From NCBI GenBank assembly GCA_008690995.1, contig VRMN01000001.1, forward strand, positions 2,604,001-2,668,000: a DNA stretch of 64,000 bases, read 5' to 3'. A model generated the notes under the pieces. That model was not told the DNA's origin and ran no database searches. It saw nothing but the letters and a program-made list of their open reading frames with translations. The position numbers were made by a program, and so were the translations under genes. Below, one piece after another: positions 36,532-50,643 of the stretch. Positions within the stretch are counted from its first letter, which is position 1, and each line of letters begins with the position of its first letter. Origin of the DNA: Porphyridium purpureum (lineage: Eukaryota; Rhodophyta; Bangiophyceae; Porphyridiales; Porphyridiaceae).

Positions 36532-39500
36532 ATGGCGGCCGGCGTGGGATCGAGGGTGCCGCTAACGGCGGTGCTGCTTTCGATTCTGCTCGCGCTCTTG
36601 GTGGGTGCGATCAGAAACCGTGCTGACGCCGCAGCGGCAGGCGCGGCAGTAGGGCACTATGACGCAGACGCAGCGTCGTTGATGGCCGAGGGCGAATCGC
36701 TGGATGAATGGATCCGCATGGCTAGGGACCAAGGAATCTCGCTGGAAGAGCTTCTAGAGCGCCCGTTCGAGAACAGGCCTGACCCTGGCTGGACAGGCGA
36801 CAACACGGTCAAGTTCTTGCTGCAGAATAACTCGGCGCTGGTCCAGTACCAGATCTCGTTCCGACCGGAGAGACCCACCGACTCGATCGACAATTACACC
36901 TTTTCGTACACAAGCAGCAACAACCTCGTGCTCGACCTGATGGAAGGCGTCAATTTTAACCTGTCGGCAATCACGTCGGAAGAGATCTCGCCGCCGTTTA
37001 ATCCGCCAGTGACGGTGTATAACCTAACATTCCTCATTTTGTTTGACGAGTACACGGGCATCACTGACATAGGCTTCACGGCAACGAACACCGCGTCGTA
37101 TCCGGTTCGTGTGCCTGAGAACTATACTTTTGTGACGGAATTCACGGCAGCGGGCTTTGTGCTGTACAGTCCCATCGACCCATTCAACGGACTGGGTTTC
37201 AATCTCGTGAACACTGGTGCTGACCGTAACAACGTATTGGATGCGTTTACGAGCGAGGATTTCCCTGGCAAGTATGACTTTGGCGTCTTTGTGCAATTCT
37301 TCAACGGAACGTCGACCAACTTTACCGTGAGCGGCATTCCGATGGACCCAGTCACGGCCGTGGTGGATCAGAACAATCTTCTCGTGAACCAACCTCCAGA
37401 GTGTACGCTGACTTCTGGTGAATGGACAGGTACTGAAATGGACTTGGGCAATTGTTCATACTCTTTCAATTCGAACGTTGCACAGGGTGAAAACTATTTT
37501 GGGTTGCAGCTGGAGTTCCAGCGCGAAGGAGATATGCTCATACTCTTCACATGGCCTGACTTTCCGGACTTTGAAGAGGGTATTGACATGGAGCCCGATT
37601 TTCAGAACTTCTATGAAGCAACGGTGATCGCACGGGAAGACATCGGCCCGGTGGTGTTCAACATCGACCCGGATGGCTTCTTGAGAGTGTGCGGTGGCGA
37701 GGAGCTGATTATTGACCTGTACAATGCCGATGGAGCCGAGCAAATTCGCTTCTTTCTGCAGCAATCGCCGCAAGCCCCGTTTCCATTTATTAGCGTCGTG
37801 GACGTTCCAGAAACGTTTTCACAGCGAGCAGTTGTTACAACTCTGCCGTACGACGCGGCATCCGGAGTCGGGCGCTCGCAGACCTGGGTAGTGCGCGTGG
37901 CCTTCCCGGGAAGCGTGCAGCTGGCGACGGATATCACGGACCCAACGTATGTGTTCATGTACGCACCTGAGCCGATGATCGACACAATTGCACCCTCTTC
38001 CAGTGACAGTCTCGACGGCGGCTTTACAGTGACATTGACGGGTACTTTTGACACATTCAATCCTGTTGATTTTCCGGATGACAACCTACTGATTAACAAT
38101 CAGCCGATTGATAAGGAGCGCATCACATTTTTCAACTCGACGACGGTACAGTTTACTATGCCCTCTCTAGTGGAACTTGACCCGACAGAGACGCAGTTTG
38201 AGTACCTTATCAGCGTGCAAATCTGTACGGAGACGTCAAACCAGGTCTCGTTTGTGTTCAATGACCTGCGCGTCATGATTGTCGTCTTTGGAGCTTCTCA
38301 GAATCCGAATACTGGAGCATGGGAGTTTACCGGCGGGGCTGTGATTACTTTGCAAGCAATTGTGACCGGGAATGTGGACGGACTTACATATCAGTGGACC
38401 TTCAACGCAGATACACCCAACGGGCCGGCTGTTTCTTTCGTTCCGGCGCTGTCGAGCACCACAGTACAAACCATTGAGTTCACGTACGAGCAGATTGACC
38501 CGGATGGTCCAGTCCCGAGAACTTTCTTTGCTACAGTTGACGTGATGAATGCGCTTGGAGCTACAGCAGACGATACGGTGGAGTTGCTCAAGCTTGACCC
38601 GGATGAGACCCAGATTGTCGTAAATATCATCGATAACGCACAGTCTGGCCGTTCGCGTGCCTTCCCGGTGGCGCCGCTTGAATTTGTATCTGAAGTTGAA
38701 GTCTTGAATCCGCCGACAACAGCGTTTACGTTGACATACGAGTGGACGTACATCTCGGGTCCTCCGTTCATTTTTACAGTGGACACCCAGGCGCCTGACG
38801 ACGCAACCACCGCCTCACGTCTTGGACGCGTCTTTACGGTGCCGCAGCCGGATATCATGGCAATTGAAGGGGGGATCAACCCGATCAGCCTGAGGGTGTT
38901 CATTACTGAACAGCCTGATGTTGTTGCCACGGCCTCGTCGAACGTTGTTATCACCGAGGCGCGCCTGGTTGCTGTTATTCGCGATGGCTCACAGGAAACG
39001 AGCTTGGGTGGCACGTCGGACTTTGTCATGACGGCGGAAAATTCGTACGACCCGGATATTCTGGCCGTTGATGGCATCCCTCAGAATACGGGACTCATTT
39101 ACGATTGGGTGAACGTGACAAAGGCAGACAATCCGAGCTTTACTGGTGCGCAAGTCGCGACTACGCTTTTCCCATCGGACGAGGGCGACGAATCATATAC
39201 GATTTCAGCAGCGACGTTTGACGGGGAGCAAATTGCTGCCACGACATACTATCGATTTTCGTTGCGTGTGCTCAAGCCCTCGATAGTGTCGCCTGGTACG
39301 AACCGTCGCTCGAATGTAGTAACCTTGACGGTGATCCGTGACGCTGACGTCCAGCAGGAATTTGTGCAGCTGGAGGACGTTTCTTATCTCTACTTGGATG
39401 GAGCAGCGGTGAACCTCGCTGCAGTCAACCCGCTCGAGTCCCTGGTCATCACGCCTATCACGGATGACCCAGAGACGACTTACGAGTATGTATTCATTGG

Positions 39501-41595
39501 CCCGCCAGCTGCTGCAGAGATTACGGAGAACTTCATCTTTACAGGCACAGGGTTCTACAACCCGCTGAATGGAGCGTCAAACCTGCCTCTGCGCATCGCG
39601 GCTGGAGGCTTGGGGCTTGGCGACTTTCAGGAAATCGGGTTCACGACCACGTACACACTGGAAATTACTGTGTTCAATCCAAATCTCGAGACCAATGTGG
39701 TCGTGGTCAGCTTCAGTACGATTCCGCAGCCGAGCATTTTGAACCTGCAGTGCAACCGATACGAGGCGACACAGGATCAACAGCTCCGTTGCTCTTCTGA
39801 ACTCTCCTTCTTTGGTGATCGAGGAACGCTGGCATACCAGTACACGTACACTGAGATCGTGGGTGGAGATGCGACTGGTGCGCCATACTGCGCCGGTGGT
39901 TGCAGTAATGATTACTTTGTGATCTTCCAGATTTCACGAGCTGGGACGTACCGTCTGCGTGTCGCGGTAATTGATCCCAAGTCGGGCATCCAGTTTGTTG
40001 CGTCGGACTTTCCGGAGGACATTGTGATTACGCCGACCTATGACAGCATTTTGACCTATTCGAATACCCAGCTGAATCTGTGTGCGGACGCGGGTGATCA
40101 CGAGTGCGTTGAGCAGATTTCGTACAATCTTGCCAAGGAACTGACGGGCGGTCGCCGCCGCCGCCGTCGTAGCCTGATGTTGGGGGGCATCGATGAGGCA
40201 ACGGCAGACCGACAGGTTGACGCCCGGGAAGATGTCTCGTTGACAGAGCTGGTGCAGCACCAGACGCAATCTGAGGTTGTGGCGAATGCACTCGCACGTG
40301 TGCGCAGGTCAAGTGGAAACTCTTTCCCAACCACCGAGCTGCTGAACAACTATTTGGAAACAATTCAACTGTTTTCAGAACTTGAGGATGATATCGTGAT
40401 TTCCACCATGCTGAGTGATATGTTGCTCATTTCGCGAACGGCTCTTTCTCGCAAGCCTGATTTCACGACAATATCCGACTTTGCAATTCAAAGGTTGCAG
40501 GTGATGTACGGAAATTTGCCTCCGATAGCACAGAATATTGGCGAAATCGAGGGGCCGACTGAGCGCCTGCAAGGAGGGTCAACGAGAAGACGGCTGCTTC
40601 AAGAAACGGGCGATAACCCGAATGACAGGAACATCAACCTAGCGAACGTGTACGCATCTCAGGGAATAGACCTGACCTTTGCTTCTGCCGACAATAGCGC
40701 ATGTGGTTTCTTCCGTGAGGTTGATGTTACTGTGACAGGTGGGTCATTTGATGATTCTATCGTATTCGTTTCCACCCGCTGCTCTGTAGACCAGAATACT
40801 GTCGACGGCCCGGTGGTTGCTGGAACCAACACATTGACAATTTGCAACGAAGTGTTTCAGAGTGGTCTTCGAACGCTTTCGTTCTACCTGGTGAGCACAC
40901 CGGAGTTTGCGTGGCTTTCAGGGTACGAGAACTCTGTGATTCCGTCCTCGAACTTGCAGTTGCCGCAGGTGTACATTGACACGTCGCGAGGTGAATTGCC
41001 AGCTGGTTTGCCGGAGGACTGCTTCACCCTGACCACGCAATTGAACATGTCAGGTGCGCCGACAGACCTCATGGTTGACACCTTCCAGCTCACTCCGCAG
41101 ACATTGGTCACCACGACGGATGTTCCGAGCGAGCTGTATCTGCGTTCGGACACCGGCCAGACAGCAGGTGAGTTGATCGAGGACGGTGATAATGTCTTCC
41201 AGGAAATTTTCATTATTCCGTCTTCTGCGCAAGGTGATCAAGGGATTCTGTTGGGCGCTGCCATTCGCGGCATCATAACGGAAGGACCGATTACAACTCT
41301 GCCGTCAGAGCCTCCAACGTCCACCGTACCATCAAGTACAACAACAGAATCACCGCCAGGGCCCCCAGGCGGGCTTTCGGGAGGAGCGATTGCTGGTATT
41401 GTTGTCGGTATTCTTCTTTTCATCATCATTGCCGTCATTATCGCGTGGTTGATAGCGACACGATGCTTTATTGTGGCTGCCCCGCCACCAGAGGAGCCGT
41501 TCGACTATGTTGAGCGTGATATCTACGGGCGTGGTTTCGTTGTGGAGCAGTCCGTCTTTTCAGAAGGGTCGGTCGCAGAGTCTGGCTTCGAGTGA
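36532..41595 (+). CDS. giant type I cell-surface protein with Ig-like/REJ-like ectodomain, 1687 aa
   Basis: The ATG at 36532 (ACCATGG context) immediately precedes a signal peptide (MAAGVGSRVPLTAVLLSILLAL), so it is chosen over the frame's extension to 36400. The ectodomain of ~1580 residues has many N-glycosylation sequons and beta-sandwich sequence. Residues ~480-580 resemble an IPT/TIG domain (IDTIAPSSSDSLDGGFTVTLTG). Residues ~600-1180 hold repeated YxWTF/YEWTYISG and YDWVNVT motifs typical of PKD/REJ-type domains of polycystin-like proteins. A run GGRRRRRRSLM near residue 1205 and RRRLLQE near ~1355 could be furin/kexin-type cleavage sites. A Pro/Thr/Ser stalk precedes one membrane helix (~1616-1643, GIVVGILLFIIIAVIIAWLI) and a ~45-residue acidic tail. 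There is no channel domain. Possible adhesion or wall-sensing role (inference). Confidence 0.72.
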   Translation: MAAGVGSRVPLTAVLLSILLALLVGAIRNRADAAAAGAAVGHYDADAASLMAEGESLDEWIRMARDQGISLEELLERPFENRPDPGWTGDNTVKFLLQNNSALVQYQISFRPERPTDSIDNYTFSYTSSNNLVLDLMEGVNFNLSAITSEEISPPFNPPVTVYNLTFLILFDEYTGITDIGFTATNTASYPVRVPENYTFVTEFTAAGFVLYSPIDPFNGLGFNLVNTGADRNNVLDAFTSEDFPGKYDFGVFVQFFNGTSTNFTVSGIPMDPVTAVVDQNNLLVNQPPECTLTSGEWTGTEMDLGNCSYSFNSNVAQGENYFGLQLEFQREGDMLILFTWPDFPDFEEGIDMEPDFQNFYEATVIAREDIGPVVFNIDPDGFLRVCGGEELIIDLYNADGAEQIRFFLQQSPQAPFPFISVVDVPETFSQRAVVTTLPYDAASGVGRSQTWVVRVAFPGSVQLATDITDPTYVFMYAPEPMIDTIAPSSSDSLDGGFTVTLTGTFDTFNPVDFPDDNLLINNQPIDKERITFFNSTTVQFTMPSLVELDPTETQFEYLISVQICTETSNQVSFVFNDLRVMIVVFGASQNPNTGAWEFTGGAVITLQAIVTGNVDGLTYQWTFNADTPNGPAVSFVPALSSTTVQTIEFTYEQIDPDGPVPRTFFATVDVMNALGATADDTVELLKLDPDETQIVVNIIDNAQSGRSRAFPVAPLEFVSEVEVLNPPTTAFTLTYEWTYISGPPFIFTVDTQAPDDATTASRLGRVFTVPQPDIMAIEGGINPISLRVFITEQPDVVATASSNVVITEARLVAVIRDGSQETSLGGTSDFVMTAENSYDPDILAVDGIPQNTGLIYDWVNVTKADNPSFTGAQVATTLFPSDEGDESYTISAATFDGEQIAATTYYRFSLRVLKPSIVSPGTNRRSNVVTLTVIRDADVQQEFVQLEDVSYLYLDGAAVNLAAVNPLESLVITPITDDPETTYEYVFIGPPAAAEITENFIFTGTGFYNPLNGASNLPLRIAAGGLGLGDFQEIGFTTTYTLEITVFNPNLETNVVVVSFSTIPQPSILNLQCNRYEATQDQQLRCSSELSFFGDRGTLAYQYTYTEIVGGDATGAPYCAGGCSNDYFVIFQISRAGTYRLRVAVIDPKSGIQFVASDFPEDIVITPTYDSILTYSNTQLNLCADAGDHECVEQISYNLAKELTGGRRRRRRSLMLGGIDEATADRQVDAREDVSLTELVQHQTQSEVVANALARVRRSSGNSFPTTELLNNYLETIQLFSELEDDIVISTMLSDMLLISRTALSRKPDFTTISDFAIQRLQVMYGNLPPIAQNIGEIEGPTERLQGGSTRRRLLQETGDNPNDRNINLANVYASQGIDLTFASADNSACGFFREVDVTVTGGSFDDSIVFVSTRCSVDQNTVDGPVVAGTNTLTICNEVFQSGLRTLSFYLVSTPEFAWLSGYENSVIPSSNLQLPQVYIDTSRGELPAGLPEDCFTLTTQLNMSGAPTDLMVDTFQLTPQTLVTTTDVPSELYLRSDTGQTAGELIEDGDNVFQEIFIIPSSAQGDQGILLGAAIRGIITEGPITTLPSEPPTSTVPSSTTTESPPGPPGGLSGGAIAGIVVGILLFIIIAVIIAWLIATRCFIVAAPPPEEPFDYVERDIYGRGFVVEQSVFSEGSVAESGFE

Positions 41596-42047: not shown

Positions 42048-43205
42048 TTATTTGTTCAGTTGCACGATCCCGGCACGCTCCAGTTGCACAAGGCGTTCCC
42101 ACACCATGATGGCCTCATCCGCAAAGCTGAACGCCTTGCGGTCGGCCATTCGCGCCTCGAGGACTTCTCGCGAAACAGTTTCAACCGCGAGCACTTCCTC
42201 GGGGTTCCTTGTCTCTTGCACGTCACTGAAATTACCCAGAGCAATGTAGACTTCGACCACACAATTCACGCTGGGCGACGCAACGATGCAACGATCGACT
42301 TTGCGAATTCTAGCGTCCGAGACTCCCAACTCCTCGGAAATCTCACGGATCGCCGCCATGGTCTCGTCCTCACCGCCACGCACTGCACCAGCGACGAACA
42401 CGTCCCACGCGGCTGGAGCGCGTGCTGAGCCCGCCGCGCGCTGCAACAATGCAATCTCTCTGGACTTGCGGTCGCGACACAGGATGGCCACACAGCGATG
42501 CAAGACACGATTTTCGCGCACAAGCCACCGTGGCAGCACGAGGATGGAAGTGCCGTTGTCTGCAACCACGTCGATCATCTCGCCCACGTCAGACTCGACG
42601 AGCCCGTCTGCGGCGGCGCCGAGGACGTCGCTGCCATTTCCCTCGCGCTCGCCCTGACGTTCCATCAGCAAAGACAGCAATGCTTGTGTGTTAATGGACG
42701 AACGAGAGTTCTTGAAGCCGAGTGCACCGCAGCAGGCCTGCATGAGCACGCAGAAAATGGCCAAGGCGTACTCATCATCCAAGGCGGTATTTTCCAGCAC
42801 AATCTCGGCTGTGTCCTGCGCTCCAGCAGCCTCACAAATCATACCGCGCAGAAGTGGAGCGGCCTCGAGCCGAGTTCCGTCGTCCAGTGCAGGTGCCCGT
42901 GTGACGATCCACCGCTCTGATCGCCCCGGCCCGACTTGCTCCCTTCGGAATACCAGGTCCTTAACCATCGTTTGCACTTCATGGACCTCATTCAGCTCCG
43001 TCGCCACCAATCTTCTCGTTCCGGCCCCCGCACTCGCGGCGCAAGCCGCAATGTGCGCACCTGGCCGACGGCGTGTGCGTAGAGAAGCGCCCAAGGCTGG
43101 GCGCCCAGTCAAACACCATGTGCGGCAGCCGCGCGGCTCACATGTCGCCACGGCTGCAGCCGTGGCCGCCGGCAACGGAGATACCCAGGCCGATGTCATG
43201 GACAT
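42048..43205 (-). CDS. Nudix hydrolase with organelle-type leader, 385 aa
   Basis: The open frame extends to 43622 but only through a TTG; the first ATGs are at 43205 and 43199. From there the protein starts with an Ala/Ser/Thr/Arg-rich leader (MSMTSAWVSPLPAATAAAV..., ~60 residues, almost no acidic residues), as in plastid or mitochondrial transit peptides. A middle region (~70-225) matches no family I know. The C-terminal ~150 residues are a Nudix domain with the full box GAVRGGEDETMAAIREISEELGV (G-x5-E-x7-RE-x2-EE-x-G), giving Mg-dependent cleavage of a nucleoside diphosphate linked to X. The layout (RDRKSREIALLQRAAGSARAPAAWD before the box, then VEVYIALGNF) recalls the IPP-isomerase-like/YfcD branch, but substrate cannot be told. 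The promoter carries two GGTACAGC motifs (43362-43394). Confidence 0.78.
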   Translation of the reverse strand: MSMTSAWVSPLPAATAAAVATCEPRGCRTWCLTGRPALGASLRTRRRPGAHIAACAASAGAGTRRLVATELNEVHEVQTMVKDLVFRREQVGPGRSERWIVTRAPALDDGTRLEAAPLLRGMICEAAGAQDTAEIVLENTALDDEYALAIFCVLMQACCGALGFKNSRSSINTQALLSLLMERQGEREGNGSDVLGAAADGLVESDVGEMIDVVADNGTSILVLPRWLVRENRVLHRCVAILCRDRKSREIALLQRAAGSARAPAAWDVFVAGAVRGGEDETMAAIREISEELGVSDARIRKVDRCIVASPSVNCVVEVYIALGNFSDVQETRNPEEVLAVETVSREVLEARMADRKAFSFADEAIMVWERLVQLERAGIVQLNK

Positions 43206-44276: not shown

Positions 44277-45257
44277 TCAAGCAATCACACAGCAACCACC
44301 CTTCTTCTCACCCCCGCCCTGCTTGCCGCCTTGCCCTCCTTGCTGCTGCTGCTGCTGTTGCTTCGGCGGGCCGCGGATAACTCGAATGTTATTCATTGTC
44401 TCTTCGTCGTCGCCGACCGTAGGGTGTCGTGTGCTGTGCCGCCATTCACCATCAACGATGAATTTGAACTCGTGCGTGCCCGTCGGCACCGGTGTCACGA
44501 CCGACCACATGCCTCCACCTTCGTGGTACATCTGCACGGGCATCCAGCCGTTCCACGATCCAGACAGCTTGACGTCATTTTCCGCACCGTCAGCCCACAC
44601 AAACTCGGTCTTCACCATAACTTCTTCCTCTTCGTCTGGGCGCTCGTAAGTTCCGTGCATGACAGGCACGTCACCGCCTCCTCCGCCGGCCATTGCCATG
44701 CCTGCACCCCCTGCGGCCATGGTTGTGGTCGCTCCCATAGGCTCGGGCTCTTCAACAAACTCTGCGTCCGGTACCATTTCGTCCTGACGCATGGCCTCGG
44801 CTTCCATAGTCTCGGCTTCCATGGGCTCCGCAGCCGGCGGCGGTGGCGGAGGTGCCATTTCCTCATCCATTTCCATACCCGGCGGTGGTGGTGGCTATGG
44901 AAAGTCAAGCACACGTTCACAACAGGATCCACGACACACATGCACACAAAACAAAAAAACGGGTCCACATAAAGATGAGACAGAAAAGAAAAGGAGATCA
45001 ACTAGTCAGCAAAACCATTCCGCGCGCGCGAGCGAACACAACTTGCGGGCCGAAAGGCCCAAAGACTCCTAGCCGAGATAGAAAGGTCCTTGAACCTTCC
45101 TTCGCTTCCTCTCCTCCGATCATCTCGGCGTTCTCCATCGCGCAAAATCCAAACAAGGTAGCAAGCAAGCGCGAGCGCAACGTACCGGTGGCGGTGCTAC
45201 TTCGCCGCCCATCATGGGCGGCGGCGGCGGCGGCGGCGGAGGCGCAAGTTCAGCCAT
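44277..45257 (-). CDS. prenylated CBM48 (AMPK-beta-type) glucan-binding protein, 229 aa, two exons
   Basis: Exon 1 is 45186-45257 (24 codons, MAELAPPPPPPP...), exon 2 is 44277-44894 (205 codons plus stop), joined in phase 0 across a GT-AG intron of 291 bases. Splicing gives a continuous proline-rich N-terminus. Without it the only start is an ATG inside the same proline-rich run (44876). After an acidic Met/Glu/Ala-rich stretch comes a CBM48 domain (~105-190): TEFVWADGAENDVKLSGSWNGW, a GTHEFKFIVDGEWRHS strand and a TVGDDEETMNNIRVI end, the layout of AMPK beta glycogen-binding modules including the two binding Trp. The AMPK-complex C-terminal domain is absent. A Gln/Gly-rich tail ends in GGCCVIA, a CaaX box (CVIA, probably farnesylated) with a neighbouring Cys. 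Predicted role: holds starch or a starch enzyme at a membrane. It is divergent from the CBM20 gene at 46255. Confidence 0.83.
44895..45185 (-). other. spliceosomal intron (291 bases) in the CBM48 gene
   Basis: The donor reads CCG|GTACGTTG and the acceptor TTTCCATAG|CCACCA. The frame is open and of the same proline-rich composition on both sides, and stops occur inside. It is the only intron I can support in the window. Confidence 0.75.
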
Positions 45258-46080
45258 GATCGCACGTTTGCTCTTCTCTCCTCCCCTCTTCCCCCCCTTC
45301 CCCTACTTCCCGCCTTCCTTCCTACCCCGTCGCCACACCTTCTCTCTTTTCCTCCTCCCCTCTCTACCTTTGACCCTAGCGCCCTTCAGCGTGTGAGCGC
45401 CCAGCACGGCACGTCTGCACACCCAGGAAAAAGTGCCCACCTGCCTACCTTCCAAAAGACGACCTACTGCCCAACCCACCAGACTACTAGAACGCCTGCG
45501 TTTTAGTAGAGAACTTGCGCATGCTCGTATGGAGCAAGTGCGCCCGCGTGCATAGATGCGCGCGCCCGCCTCGCACTTTCGGTCTTCATAATCCAGCGTG
45601 TCTGTTTATAGCGAGCGGCCTCAAAAAAGCGGCTTGTGGTGGGTCTTGTCCGTTTCGATCCCACGAAATCATCCCCGTCTTGTGCGTACGGTCCTACCCA
45701 AAGCTCTCCGCTTTACTTGTTCCGCGTCAAGACACCACCTCCATAGCCACCACTAGCAACACTGCGCCACAAACCGTAACAAACACTCCCTTTGCGCTAT
45801 AGAAACAATGTCGGTTTACCACACTCCACATCGACACATCCTTGACCGCAGGTGTCACGTGTGCGCAGAAAATAGGAAAAGGTGGTGGGGGGGCGCTGTT
45901 TCCCGTTACGCGTTTATCCTACTTTTCCTACTTTTCCTATTTTTGTACCAGGCTTGCTGTAAGACCGTCTTTGCCGCGACGCGCTCTGGCTCCACACCGC
46001 GCCACATCGGACCGGGTCATCGCAAAGGATGCCGATGCAATTGCGCATTGCCGCCATTCCAGGCAAGAGGATCGGACTGT
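45258..46080. other. divergent promoter region, CBM48 and CBM20 genes
   Basis: About 1 kb between start codons. It begins with a pyrimidine-rich stretch (45260-45380) at the CBM48 side. No separate gene seen. Confidence 0.45.
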
Positions 46081-46124
46081 AGCTGTACACGCAGGTACAG
46101 CAGATTTTGGTTGTGTACAGTGAC
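46081..46124 (+). promoter_or_regulatory. cluster of three GTAC-core motifs upstream of the CBM20 gene
   Basis: AGCTGTACAC (46081), GGTACAGC (46094) and GTGTACAGTGAC (46113), in both orientations, ending 131 bases before ATG 46255. Confidence 0.45.
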
Positions 46125-46254
46125 CATTGTGCCACGCACGTGTGGCGGACCAAATCGGATCTGGATGGAAGCCGTTGGTGGTGTGGTGCCACGGTGGACG
46201 GCAGCGTGTGTCGAGTGTGAGGCGGTCTGGTGAAGTTGCGGGGAGATAGGCAGC

Positions 46255-47151
46255 ATGGGAGTGGTCACGCTGCGCGCGACGCTGATAACGTCCAGCAAGG
46301 ACGTGCGCTTATGCGTGGTGGGTTCGTGCGACGCGTTGGGCGCCTGGCGCGTCGGCGACGCGGTGCCGCTCACGCCAGTGAACGAGTCCCAGTTTGAAGT
46401 CACGGTGGACGTTGAACAGCCGGCAGAGTACAAGTACGTGCTCTTGGACAAGTCGAGGCCAGGTCAGTTTAGGTGGGAAGACGGCGGCAATAGAAAACTG
46501 CACCCAGACGTCGGCTTTGTCAGCGACCCGCTGCAAGCGTGGGGCGTCAAATTCCGCGAGTGGGAGCACCACGAGCCTGGCTCGCTGAACCTGAACGACC
46601 CGGCGTACGAAGAGGGACGCTTCTTGCTTGTACCGCTCGCGTCGGGGGTCCTGCCGAGCGCGTACTCGCTCACACAAACCACGGCAAAGCAGTCGCAGGG
46701 CGCCCTGTCGGCTGTCACGGTGGCGTCGTCTGGTGAGAACAGCCCAGCCATATTCGCACGCTCGGGACCCGCGAGCGCAGCTGGTGTTGTTCCTGAAGAG
46801 CCTCTGCTCGTGGTCGAGAGCAACGACACAGAGCCAGCACCCTCGGCAGGTCCCAAGGACGGCGCACTATTGCCGCAGGAAGCCACACAGACCAGTGCTT
46901 CGGATGTAGATGAGACGCCCGCAGAGACCCAAACGATTCAAAGCAGCCGCGGAGAACCCTGGGCTGGGCCAGACGTTGCAGAGCCAGCAGCTGGGGAAGC
47001 GAAAAGCTTGGACAAGCCAACGTTGGAAGAACCTCGCGTTGCGGATTCAAGCGGGCCGATTATGGTCGGGGCTGCCGCCGCGGGCGCCGCTCTTCTCATT
47101 CTTTCTTGCTTCCTCCGGAGCGGGCCCAAGTTTGTTGCCAATCCGGTCTAA
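46255..47151 (+). CDS. tail-anchored CBM20 starch-binding protein, 298 aa
   Basis: The ATG at 46255 opens directly into a CBM20 domain (residues ~3-105): TLRATLITSSKDVRLCVVGSCDALGAW, a SQFEVTVDVEQPAEYKYVLLD strand pair, then FRWEDGGNRKLHPD; the Trp and the W-E-x-G-x-N-R motif are the known starch-contacting residues. A disordered acidic, Ser/Thr/Pro/Ala-rich linker (~130-265) follows. The protein ends with one hydrophobic helix (IMVGAAAAGAALLILSCFL, ~273-291) and a short basic end, the layout of a tail-anchored protein facing the cytosol. Animal STBD1 also joins a CBM20 to a membrane helix, though at the opposite end, and brings glycogen to membranes. A cytosol-facing starch binder makes sense where starch is stored in the cytosol, as in red algae. 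It is the divergent partner of the CBM48 gene. Confidence 0.87.
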   Translation: MGVVTLRATLITSSKDVRLCVVGSCDALGAWRVGDAVPLTPVNESQFEVTVDVEQPAEYKYVLLDKSRPGQFRWEDGGNRKLHPDVGFVSDPLQAWGVKFREWEHHEPGSLNLNDPAYEEGRFLLVPLASGVLPSAYSLTQTTAKQSQGALSAVTVASSGENSPAIFARSGPASAAGVVPEEPLLVVESNDTEPAPSAGPKDGALLPQEATQTSASDVDETPAETQTIQSSRGEPWAGPDVAEPAAGEAKSLDKPTLEEPRVADSSGPIMVGAAAAGAALLILSCFLRSGPKFVANPV

Positions 47152-47417: not shown

Positions 47418-48509
47418 ATGCGCGTGTGTGTAGTCGGCGCCGGCGCTATCGGGGCTCTCCTCGGTGTGAAGATATGGCACGCGGCAGGCGGTGAGCACGC
47501 CGTGACCATGGTAGGGCGGGCAGGAAGTCACTTGTCTGCCATGCAGCGAGATGGGCTTCGTTTGTGTGGTGAAAGTGTAGCCGACGATGTGAGCGCCTCG
47601 GGGGATAATGGCGGTGAGATTTGTATGCGCACAGGAGAGCGCAACGCAGCATTCTTCTCGAGCTTGGAAGACGTGCCACAAAAGCAAGACGTGGTATTTC
47701 TGGCGCTGAAGGAGAACCAGCTCGCGCAAATCATGCCAGGCTTGCCAAGCGTGTCGCACGCGGAGACGGTGTATGTGACGCTGCAGAATGGCATTCCCTG
47801 GTGGTATTTCCAAATCTATTCGGGTCCGAATGAGTATGCGAACAAGGTGGTGGAGAGCGTTGATCCGCAGGGTGTGCTGTTCCATGGCATCGATCCATGC
47901 AGAGTGCTGGGCTGCGTAGTGTACCCTGCAGCTCGTAAGAAGGAGCCCGGCGTCGTTGAGCACGTAGAGGGCATCCGGTTCCCGCTCGGCGAGCTGGACG
48001 GCTCGCACTCGGAACGCGCAGAGCGGATCTCGCAGCTACTTGTCACAGCTGGCTTCAAGGCGCCCGTGGTAGAAGACATCCGTTCCGAACTGTGGCTTAA
48101 ATTGTGGGGCAGTCTCGCTTTCAACCCTATTTCTGCGCTGTGCCATGCTACGCTTGGGGAGCTGTGCACGTTTCCTCCTTCGCGCGAACTAGCCGTGCGC
48201 ATGATGCGCGAGGCAGAGCAGGTCGGCATCGCACTGGGCGCGTCCTTTCGAGTCCCGCTCGAACGCCGCCTCGATGGCGCGGCGAGTGTGGGTGCGCACA
48301 AAACATCCATGTGTGCGGACGTTGAGGCCGGGCGCCCGATGGAAGTCGATGCCATTATGGCAAGCGTCGTCGAGCTCGGCGCGCTCACAGGCGTGTTTAT
48401 GCCATCCGTCTCAGCCGTTTACGCGCTCCTTCAGCTGCTCAATCGTCAGCTGGATCAAGGCGTCTCCTTCCCTGCCGTCCCAGCGCCACTACCGGACCCA
48501 AAAATGTGA
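47418..48509 (+). CDS. panE: ketopantoate reductase-family (PanE/ApbA) oxidoreductase, 363 aa
   Basis: The first ATG at 47418 leads straight into the NADP-binding Rossmann motif (VCVVGAGAIGALLG, GxGxxG), so the frame's extension to a GTG at 47346 is not used. The N-terminal domain has LKENQ, and QNGIPWWYF at the nucleotide-site Asn. The C-terminal helical domain (ApbA_C) includes LWLKLWGSLAFNPISAL, VGAHKTSM and GRPMEVDAI with the catalytic/substrate residues of the family. The reaction would be NADPH-dependent reduction of 2-dehydropantoate to pantoate for CoA synthesis, or a related 2-keto acid. From memory, these motifs (GIPWWYF, ESVDPxG, RRIDGAxxVGAHKTSM) are those of a proteobacterial PanE-like subfamily rather than classic PanE, so bacterial ancestry is likely but untested. 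It lies 266 bases downstream of the CBM20 gene. Confidence 0.87.
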   Translation: MRVCVVGAGAIGALLGVKIWHAAGGEHAVTMVGRAGSHLSAMQRDGLRLCGESVADDVSASGDNGGEICMRTGERNAAFFSSLEDVPQKQDVVFLALKENQLAQIMPGLPSVSHAETVYVTLQNGIPWWYFQIYSGPNEYANKVVESVDPQGVLFHGIDPCRVLGCVVYPAARKKEPGVVEHVEGIRFPLGELDGSHSERAERISQLLVTAGFKAPVVEDIRSELWLKLWGSLAFNPISALCHATLGELCTFPPSRELAVRMMREAEQVGIALGASFRVPLERRLDGAASVGAHKTSMCADVEAGRPMEVDAIMASVVELGALTGVFMPSVSAVYALLQLLNRQLDQGVSFPAVPAPLPDPKM

Positions 48510-49398: not shown

Positions 49399-50643
49399 AT
49401 GGCGAATGTGAGCAGCGCGTTTGTGGCATGCCCAGGTATGCCTCGGCTAGGAGTGCGCAGCTCCTCCAATCGCGCGTGGCGAGATGTGGTGCGGTTTTCC
49501 CCGCCGATGTGTCGACGAGCGCGACCCATCGCCACGCCGCCGGTTCCTCGTTGTAGCAGTGTCGAGATGGACGAAGCGCTTTCTGAAACTGGTGAGCCGT
49601 CCTCCATGTCGTCGTCCGAGTCTGGGACAAAGAGGAAGCTGCGCGTGCTGTCGGGCGTGCAACCGACAGGCTCGCTGCATTTGGGCAATTACTTTGGCGC
49701 TATTCGAAACTGGGTTCTGACGCAACACCAGTACGAGTCTTTTTTCTGCGTTGTGGATATGCACGCGATCACAATGCCATACAAGGCTAAGGAGCTATCG
49801 GAGGTGACTTACAAAACCGCGGCGCTCTACCTTGCCGCCGGCATTGATGCCAACACGTCAAAAGTTTTTGTGCAGAGCCATGTTAAGGAGCACGCCGAAC
49901 TCACATGGCTGCTCAACTGTATCACGCCCATGAACTGGCTCGAGCGTATGATCCAATACAAAGAAAAGGCGCGGAAACAGGGCGAGAACGTTGGCGTCGG
50001 GCTGTTTGACTACCCAGTACTGATGGCGGCTGACGTGCTGCTCTACCAGACTGACGTGGTACCCGTAGGCGAAGACCAGAAGCAGCACATTGAACTGGCG
50101 CGAGATATTGCTCGCCGCTTCAACGACCAGTTTGCAAAGCGCGCGCGGCCGCGCGTCCTGAGGGAACCAAACCCGCTGATCCAAAAAGATGGTGCGCGGC
50201 TCATGTCCCTGGAAGACGGCACGAGCAAGATGTCGAAAAGTGCTGAAAGTGACTTTTCACGTATCAACCTGGACGATGATCCAAAGCTCATCGAGAAAAA
50301 AATCAAGCGCTGCAAGACCGACTCGCTGAAGGGGCTGACATATGACGACCCGAATCGACCGGAAGTACGCAATCTGCTCACCATTTATCAATTGTGCACA
50401 GGAAAGAGCAAGGAAGAGGTGATCGCAGAGTGTGCGGACATGAACTTTGGCACCTTCAAGCCACTGCTCACGGATGCCATTATTGAACACCTCTCTCCGA
50501 TTCAAAAGACTTACAATGAGCTGATTTTGGACCGCGCATACCTCGACGAAGTACTTACGAAAGGCGCCGCTGAGGCGCGCGAAGTCGCAGCTGCGACAGT
50601 AAGTGAGGTCAAAAAGTACATGGGCTTCACACAACCTCTTTAG
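49399..50643 (+). CDS. WARS2: tryptophanyl-tRNA synthetase, bacterial/organellar type, 414 aa
   Basis: The frame opens upstream only from a GTG at 49318; ATG 49399 gives a ~80-residue leader rich in Ser, Arg, Ala and Val, then the catalytic core. Class I signatures are VLSGVQPTGSLHLGNYFG (HIGH-type TGSLHLGN, ~87-99) and SKMSKS (KMSKS loop, ~276). PVLMAADVLLYQTDVVPVGEDQKQHIELARDIA is typical of bacterial TrpS, not of the cytosolic eukaryotic enzyme. After the core, LTIYQLCTGKS and the helical C-terminal anticodon region are complete. It charges tRNA-Trp with tryptophan; the leader suggests import into plastid, mitochondrion or both. The mature part (~330 residues) has the normal length. The promoter has GTAC motifs at 49183-49256. 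Confidence 0.94.
   Translation: MANVSSAFVACPGMPRLGVRSSSNRAWRDVVRFSPPMCRRARPIATPPVPRCSSVEMDEALSETGEPSSMSSSESGTKRKLRVLSGVQPTGSLHLGNYFGAIRNWVLTQHQYESFFCVVDMHAITMPYKAKELSEVTYKTAALYLAAGIDANTSKVFVQSHVKEHAELTWLLNCITPMNWLERMIQYKEKARKQGENVGVGLFDYPVLMAADVLLYQTDVVPVGEDQKQHIELARDIARRFNDQFAKRARPRVLREPNPLIQKDGARLMSLEDGTSKMSKSAESDFSRINLDDDPKLIEKKIKRCKTDSLKGLTYDDPNRPEVRNLLTIYQLCTGKSKEEVIAECADMNFGTFKPLLTDAIIEHLSPIQKTYNELILDRAYLDEVLTKGAAEAREVAAATVSEVKKYMGFTQPL

What the first reader, a model, noticed from the sequence alone, without database searches (positions are those of the whole stretch)
44277..47151. Divergent pair of membrane-anchored starch-binding proteins
Two neighbouring genes with start codons about 1 kb apart each join a glucan-binding domain to a membrane anchor: a CBM48 protein with a CaaX box (GGCCVIA) and a CBM20 protein with a C-terminal helix. 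Domains and anchors are seen in the sequence. It is known that animal STBD1 (CBM20 plus membrane helix) and AMPK beta (CBM48, lipid-modified) bring glycogen to membranes. Inference: this is a starch-to-membrane tethering module for cytosolic starch, co-regulated from one promoter, which I have not seen described in algae.
Basis: partly seen in the sequence, partly recalled or inferred. Interest (0 to 1): 0.75.

Follow-up and report, generated by a model that had tools for sequence, protein, structure and literature searches.

The report
Red-algal lipid-anchored starch-binding protein family
One of the two neighbouring genes belongs to a highly conserved red-algal family that joins a starch-binding domain to a lipid attachment signal, probably to hold starch at membranes; the other gene looks like a lineage-specific neighbour rather than a conserved partner.

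Summary
Both genes are real, in Porphyridium purpureum. The minus-strand gene (two exons, 45257-44277) encodes a 229-aa CBM48 (AMPK1_CBM) protein ending GGCCVIA. The plus-strand gene (46255-47151) encodes a 298-aa CBM20 protein with one C-terminal hydrophobic helix.

Of 120 listed relatives, 65 carry Cys at -4, all among the 68 best hits (Pyropia, Porphyra, Gracilariopsis, Agarophyton, Rhodosorus, Galdieria, unnamed records); the other 52 have none. The linker varies, the anchor does not, and four of five glucan-contact residues are invariant. Farnesyltransferase-beta, PTAR1-like and ICMT-like genes are present.

The pair half is weak. The CBM20 protein found no relative in two searches; 0.05 such neighbours are expected by chance; the 1-kb divergent gap is ordinary here.

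Most likely: a red-algal prenylated, possibly doubly lipidated, glucan adaptor that holds a CBM48 on the cytosolic face of a membrane, tethering or sensing floridean starch. Anchor conservation is shown; prenylation, binding and tethering are inferred. No description appeared in the listings of ten open-access searches, most of them capped.

The parts
45186..45257 (-). CBM48-CaaX gene, exon 1 (24 codons, MAELAPPPP...)
   Evidence: GT donor directly after, frame joins exon 2 in phase 0; splice sites read from sequence, no transcript seen
44895..45185 (-). intron, 291 bp, GTACGT...CATAG
44277..44894 (-). CBM48-CaaX gene, exon 2 including stop; acidic/proline-rich N part, CBM48, Q/G/K linker, CaaX
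44373..44615 (-). CBM48 (AMPK1_CBM, PF16561) domain; W, K, W, N of the glucan site kept
44280..44300 (-). GGCCVIA: CaaX box CVIA with tandem cysteine, stop at 44277-44279
   Evidence: conserved in relatives
45258..46254 (.). 997-bp divergent intergenic region between the two start codons
46255..47151 (+). CBM20 gene, single open frame, 298 aa
46288..46500 (+). CBM20 (PF00686) domain with LGxW, YK and RWExxxNR motifs
47059..47115 (+). C-terminal hydrophobic helix (residues 269-287), tail-anchor-like
   Evidence: hydropathy only

Best explanation
The minus-strand gene encodes a small, non-enzymatic member of a red-algal protein family: an AMPK-beta-type CBM48 followed by a variable flexible linker and a conserved basic KKxCCaaX tail. 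The cysteine at -4 is probably farnesylated, the tail trimmed and methylated, and the neighbouring cysteine given a second lipid (palmitate, or geranylgeranyl as in Ykt6), so that the glucan-binding face is held on the cytosolic side of a membrane. There it would tether or locally recruit cytosolic (floridean) starch or its precursors. SHOWN: domain, coding frame, anchor and glucan-site conservation, presence of prenylation genes. INFERRED: prenylation itself, glucan binding, membrane identity, tethering. The neighbouring CBM20 protein may act alike through a tail anchor, but it is treated as a separate, lineage-specific gene.
For: Cys at -4 in 65 of 120 listed relatives: 65 of the 68 best (P0002-P0069) and 0 of the other 52; Cys at both -5 and -4 in 62. 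In those 65, the linker (-30 to -9) has 3.1-3.7 bits of entropy per position while -8 and -7 are mostly K (48 and 45), -5 is C (62), and -2 is I, V or L (63); 59 of 60 last-30 stretches of class A differ. Domain-only tree: 61 of 62 CaaX sequences, own included, fall in one clade of 64 with support 0.90; the one outside is Galdieria P0069 (116 of 120 hit domains used). Equivalents of rat AMPK-beta1 W100, K126, W133 and N150 are invariant in 61 of 61 class-A and 50 of 50 sister domains. FT-beta, RabGGT-beta, three genes with PPTA repeats (one below Pfam's cut-off, but matching PTAR1) and ICMT-family matches are in the genome. No AMPKBI domain, whereas the true AMPK-beta elsewhere in the genome has it.
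Against: No experimental evidence of prenylation, binding or localisation. The fifth contact residue (L146) is not kept. The class-A domain is far more conserved (pairwise identity at least 75%, median 88%) than glucan binding alone seems to need, hinting at a protein partner. The sister clade of 50 keeps the glucan site without a CaaX, so anchoring is not needed for the domain's basic role. Five CaaX-less sequences lie in or beside the class-A clade: P0032, P0049, P0057 inside, P0070 and P0072 next to it (support 0.62); P0049 and P0057 carry isoform numbers of one assembled gene, and P0070 and P0072 stop right after the domain, so some may be truncated models. ICMT-family matches also appear in 5 of 14 prokaryote control genomes, so that hit is not specific. 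The CaaX protease was not searched. The AlphaFold model was unusable.
Confidence: 0.58

Rival explanations
1. Membrane-anchored glucan sensor or scaffold rather than tether: the CBM48 mainly binds a conserved protein partner (kinase, phosphatase or starch enzyme) and uses glucan as a regulatory ligand, as AMPK-beta does.
For: Extreme conservation of the whole domain across class A, with 45 invariant columns among 32 class A and B sequences chosen for alignment; AMPK-beta is the closest solved relative.
Against: AMPKBI interaction domain absent; no partner known; four glucan-site residues are themselves invariant.
Confidence: 0.25
2. The two genes form a co-regulated starch-to-membrane tethering module driven from one divergent promoter.
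For: Closest of the CBM48-CBM20 locus pairs found in the genome, 1.9 kb between the domain matches; both have anchor-like C termini.
Against: 0.05 such pairs expected within 2 kb by chance; no relative of the CBM20 protein found in two searches, while the CBM48 protein has 175; divergent gaps of about 1 kb are ordinary in a rough ORF map.
Confidence: 0.08
3. The tail is lipidated, but the lipid is mostly masked and the protein is soluble, as reported for doubly prenylated Ykt6; the lipid then serves folding or regulation, not anchoring.
For: Tandem cysteine as in Ykt6; PTAR1-like gene present; Ykt6 stays mostly cytosolic despite two prenyl groups (PMC12001115, passages).
Against: Ykt6 hides its lipids in its own folded domain (recalled); here the linker is low-complexity and variable and no such domain is seen.
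Confidence: 0.09

Closest known systems
AMPK / SnRK1 beta subunit (CBM48 + AMPKBI; N-myristoylated in animals, recalled)
   Same: Closest solved CBM48 (1z0n, E=1.4e-11); glucan-site residues
   Different: No AMPKBI domain; the anchor is a C-terminal CaaX. The genome has a separate AMPK-beta at L001 with AMPKBI. The public name 'SNF1-related protein kinase regulatory subunit beta-2' on P0029 and P0096 is therefore misleading at least for P0096, which was scanned.
STBD1 (N-terminal membrane helix + C-terminal CBM20, ER protein)
   Same: Membrane anchor joined to a starch/glycogen-binding module; STBD1 CBM20 is one of two weak solved matches to the window CBM20 protein (E=0.066)
   Different: The window CBM20 protein has the reverse order (CBM20 first, helix last). 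A different P. purpureum gene, L014, has the STBD1 order. STBD1 facts from PMC5358331, passages.
Ykt6 (adjacent C-terminal cysteines, farnesyl + geranylgeranyl)
   Same: Tandem cysteine at the CaaX box; FT-beta, RabGGT-beta and PTAR1-like genes present
   Different: Pfam shows only the CBM48, no SNARE or longin domain; a second lipid on the algal family is unknown. Ykt6 facts from PMC12001115, passages.
Plant PTST/MFP1 system that places starch granules (recalled)
   Same: Non-enzymatic CBM48 protein linked to a membrane factor (recalled)
   Different: Plastidial, coiled-coil based, no CaaX (recalled); not compared here.

Membership tests
CBM48 / AMPK1_CBM domain | Pfam PF16561 above the curated cut-off | tested here: met
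   70.2 bits against 26.8
CBM48 / AMPK1_CBM domain | Glucan-contact residues W100, K126, W133, L146, N150 (rat beta1, recalled) | tested here: inconclusive
   W100, K126, W133 and N150 kept; L146 is E in the window protein; binding itself untested
AMPK/SnRK1 beta subunit | AMPKBI (ASC) C-terminal interaction domain | tested here: not met
   Absent in the window protein and in P0016, P0069, P0096; present in L001
CaaX prenyl protein | C-terminal C-a-a-X, conserved | tested here: met
   CVIA; Cys at -4 in 65 of the 68 best hits
CaaX prenyl protein | Prenyltransferase and processing genes in the genome | tested here: inconclusive
   FT-beta, PPTA genes, ICMT-family match (family also rings in 5 of 14 prokaryote controls); CaaX protease not searched
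CaaX prenyl protein | Lipid actually attached | not testable with these tools
   needs mass spectrometry or metabolic labelling
STBD1 | CBM20 above cut-off | tested here: met
   window CBM20 protein 40.1 bits against 23.3
STBD1 | N-terminal membrane helix with C-terminal CBM20 | tested here: not met
   window protein has the opposite order
Conserved tethering pair | Both genes conserved side by side | tested here: inconclusive
   CBM48 conserved, CBM20 protein without detected relative; synteny in relatives could not be read

The most novel reading that the evidence does not exclude
Red algae possess an ancient family of (doubly) lipidated CBM48 proteins that fix where cytosolic floridean starch forms or sits on membranes. 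It would be a cytosolic, lipid-based counterpart of the plastid granule-placing system of plants, with a CaaX-free sister family (KK...GFFGK tail) as its soluble partner or competitor.
Probability: 0.35. Interest if true: 0.82.

Novelty: new variant of a known kind. Interest (0 to 1): 0.6.

Why it matters
In the red alga Cyanidioschyzon merolae a glycogenin homologue has been tied to starch synthesis (PMC11986951, passages), but nothing I saw says how red algae decide where granules sit in the cytosol. A short, conserved, single-domain protein with a removable lipid signal is an unusually direct handle: one cysteine change tests whether membrane attachment matters. It would also extend lipid-anchored glucan adaptors beyond animals and correct a misleading database name.

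Tried and rejected
Structure prediction of the CBM48 protein on a 32-row alignment gave mean pLDDT 51.3 and pTM 0.27, so it was not used and no fold search was run; the second structure job was not used. Two protein-database searches with the CBM20 protein (whole, and residues 1-112) found only itself; the tool needs shared 5-residue words, and only the 7998 candidates sharing most words were scored, so a fast-evolving relative could be missed. The idea that the helix-bearing CBM48 proteins (L029-L031 with a C-terminal helix, L032 with an internal one) are sisters of the CaaX family with a swapped anchor was considered: their placement is unresolved (support 0.32-0.55) and they lack the K126 and W133 equivalents, so it is kept only as a lead. 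AMPK-beta identity was rejected (no AMPKBI).

Literature: ten searches of an open-access library; some searches were aimed at STBD1, granule position and the genome paper rather than at this family. No title or start of abstract in the listings pointed to a CaaX CBM48 protein or a prenylated starch-binding protein in algae. Most listings were capped (20 of 36, 20 of 80, 12 of 18, 8 of 83), one search found no paper, and subscription papers are not held. Passages of seven papers were seen: PMC12001115, PMC8703398, PMC11986951, PMC8523428, PMC5358331, PMC12609287 and PMC6811547. 'CBM48' occurs 0 times in PMC8703398, which discusses CBM20; the PMC11986951 passages discuss CBM45 and CBM20; 'starch' occurs 0 times in the plant-prenylation review PMC12609287.

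Limits: only 120 of the 175 database hits were listed. Four of those 120 (P0046, P0052, P0058, P0068, all with Cys at -4) dropped out of the tree because their domain was not recovered in one piece. A stricter pattern of mine (aliphatic a1 and a2, limited X) matches 50 of 120. The gap comparison uses a greedy map of long ORFs without introns; one of its six gaps (700 bp) involves an ORF antisense to the CBM48 gene and is spurious.

Full report
WHERE IT IS. The window is G000:C43:2604001-2668000 of a 22,164,627-base genome in 46 contigs. One database protein on a contig of the same length as C43 (5,717,864) is named Porphyridium purpureum (P0096), and the published P. purpureum CCMP1328 assembly is 22.1 Mbp with a largest contig of 5.7 Mbp and 9898 gene models (PMC6811547, passages; it gives 52 contigs, not 46). 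The organism is therefore taken as P. purpureum.

THE TWO GENES. The minus-strand gene has two exons (45257-45186 and 44894-44277) with a 291-bp GT...AG intron, giving 229 aa: a proline-rich and acidic N part, a CBM48, a Q/G/K linker and the end GGCCVIA. Pfam calls AMPK1_CBM at E=1.8e-19. No identical public record is among the 120 listed hits (best 91%), so the gene model rests on the DNA and on its relatives. The plus-strand gene 46255-47151 gives 298 aa with CBM20 at residues 12-82 (E=3.1e-10), a long middle part and a hydrophobic helix at 269-287; the four best hydropathy windows all overlap this helix, which suits a tail anchor. Solved relatives are AMPK-beta1 for the first (E=1.4e-11), and only weak ones for the second: a glycerophosphodiester phosphodiesterase 5 domain and STBD1 (E=0.055 and 0.066). 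Its CBM20 keeps the LGxW, YK and WE...NR motifs; PMC8703398 (passages) names Trp32, Lys87 and Trp99 of laforin as starch-binding positions, and I take these motifs as their equivalents without having aligned laforin.

THE CBM48-CaaX FAMILY. A search with the CBM48-to-C-terminus part (residues 84-199 of the exon-2 frame) found 175 proteins at E<=1e-6 among 191 candidates; 120 were listed. Named sources are Pyropia vietnamensis (three genes), Porphyra umbilicalis, Agarophyton chilense, Gracilariopsis chorda, Gracilaria domingensis, a record with taxid 101924, which is Rhodosorus marinus, Galdieria sulphuraria, a Timspurckia species and P. purpureum. Of the 120, 65 have Cys at -4 and 62 have Cys at both -5 and -4; all 65 are among the 68 best hits, where the three exceptions are P0032, P0049 and P0057. 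None of the remaining 52 has it. Fifty of those 52 form a sister type with basic-aromatic tails such as KK...GFFGK (F or W in the last eight residues in 49 of 50); the other two, P0070 and P0072, lie beside class A in the tree and stop right after the domain. In the 65 the linker is highly variable (3.1-3.7 bits per position from -30 to -9) and then K, K, x, C, C, small/aliphatic, I/V/L, X stands out; 59 of 60 class-A tails differ over their last 30 residues. This is the pattern expected of a selected anchor, not of common descent alone. Position -4 defines the 65, so its invariance within them is by construction; the test is 65 of 68 against 0 of 52.

TREE. From CBM48 domains alone (116 of 120 hits, plus own-genome and rat domains), 61 of 62 CaaX sequences, own included, lie in a clade of 64 (support 0.90); the CaaX-free sister type forms a clade of 50 (0.99); the Galdieria protein P0069, which ends CNCSIQ, is the one CaaX sequence outside and sits by the latter (0.75). 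Its position suggests that the anchor is older than the split of the two types and was lost in one, but one sequence is thin evidence. Class-A domains are at least 75.3% alike pairwise, median 88.2%.

GLUCAN SITE. The residues aligned to rat AMPK-beta1 W100, K126, W133 and N150 (numbering recalled) are invariant in 61 class-A and 50 sister domains; L146 is not kept. So binding of alpha-glucan is likely, but untested.

LIPIDATION MACHINERY. The genome search gave two prenyltransferase beta genes, one best matched by farnesyltransferase beta (E=8.5e-75) and one by Rab geranylgeranyltransferase beta (E=1.2e-98), and none for type I; three genes with PPTA repeats, of which one, itself below Pfam's cut-off, matches PTAR1 (E=1.1e-8); and three ICMT-family matches, best E=1.1e-26 (the family also rings in 5 of 14 prokaryote controls). 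PTAR1 with RabGGT-beta forms GGT3, which adds a second prenyl group to farnesylated Ykt6, whose two C-terminal cysteines are adjacent (PMC12001115, passages). A double lipid on the CC tail is therefore possible; palmitate is the other option. This is inference. The CaaX protease was not searched.

THE PAIR. The own genome gave 20 CBM48 matches and 24 CBM20 matches, which I grouped into 17 and 17 loci. The expected number of CBM48-CBM20 pairs within 2 kb is 0.05; the observed pair is the closest at 1.9 kb, the next is 6.6 kb. Divergent neighbours in a rough map of long ORFs of the window lie 408 to 2946 bp apart (six gaps, one of them spurious). With no relative of the CBM20 protein found, nothing beyond proximity supports a module.

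A WIDER PATTERN. Other own-genome open frames join a CBM to a hydrophobic helix: L029, L030 and L031 (CBM48 with a C-terminal helix), L032 (CBM48, internal helix) and L014 (N-terminal hydrophobic stretch, C-terminal CBM20, the STBD1 order). The four CBM48 ones lack the equivalents of K126 and W133, so they may not bind glucan. These are open frames only, not confirmed genes.

VERDICT. Observation confirmed; interpretation partly supported. The notable result is the conserved red-algal CBM48-KKxCCaaX family, not the pair.

Noticed in passing
L029 1442-2590(-), L030 1713-2630(-), L031 1545-2516(+), L032 1350-2459(-): Four further CBM48 open frames of the same genome carry hydrophobic helices (three at the C terminus, one internal) but lack the K126 and W133 equivalents of the glucan site.
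   Followed up: partly
L014 1471-1995(-): 175-aa open frame with an N-terminal hydrophobic stretch and C-terminal CBM20, the domain order of animal STBD1.
   Followed up: partly
50 of P0070-P0121; own copy at L025 1744-2253(+): Sister CBM48 family without CaaX but with a recurring basic-aromatic C terminus (KK..GFFGK; F or W in the last eight in 49 of 50) and, in 33 of 50, an MF start; function unknown.
   Followed up: partly
L025 and L026; L035 and L036: Two stretches are each present twice in the assembly at about 99% identity over at least 3.3 and 5.1 kb, with one copy near a contig start; recent duplications or uncollapsed haplotypes.
   Followed up: no
L001 1198-2184(+): The true AMPK beta subunit (CBM48 + AMPKBI) begins MGLVSS, which resembles an N-myristoylation signal (motif recalled).
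   Followed up: no
P0029, P0096: Public names 'SNF1-related protein kinase regulatory subunit beta-2' on proteins of these families; P0096 was scanned and lacks AMPKBI, P0029 was not scanned.
   Followed up: partly
window 42051-43205(-), 47418-48509(+), 49399-50643(+), 36532-41595(+): Neighbours are a NUDIX protein, a ketopantoate-reductase-like (ApbA) protein, a class I W/Y tRNA synthetase and a REJ-domain protein; none of these is a starch gene by its Pfam domain.
   Followed up: partly
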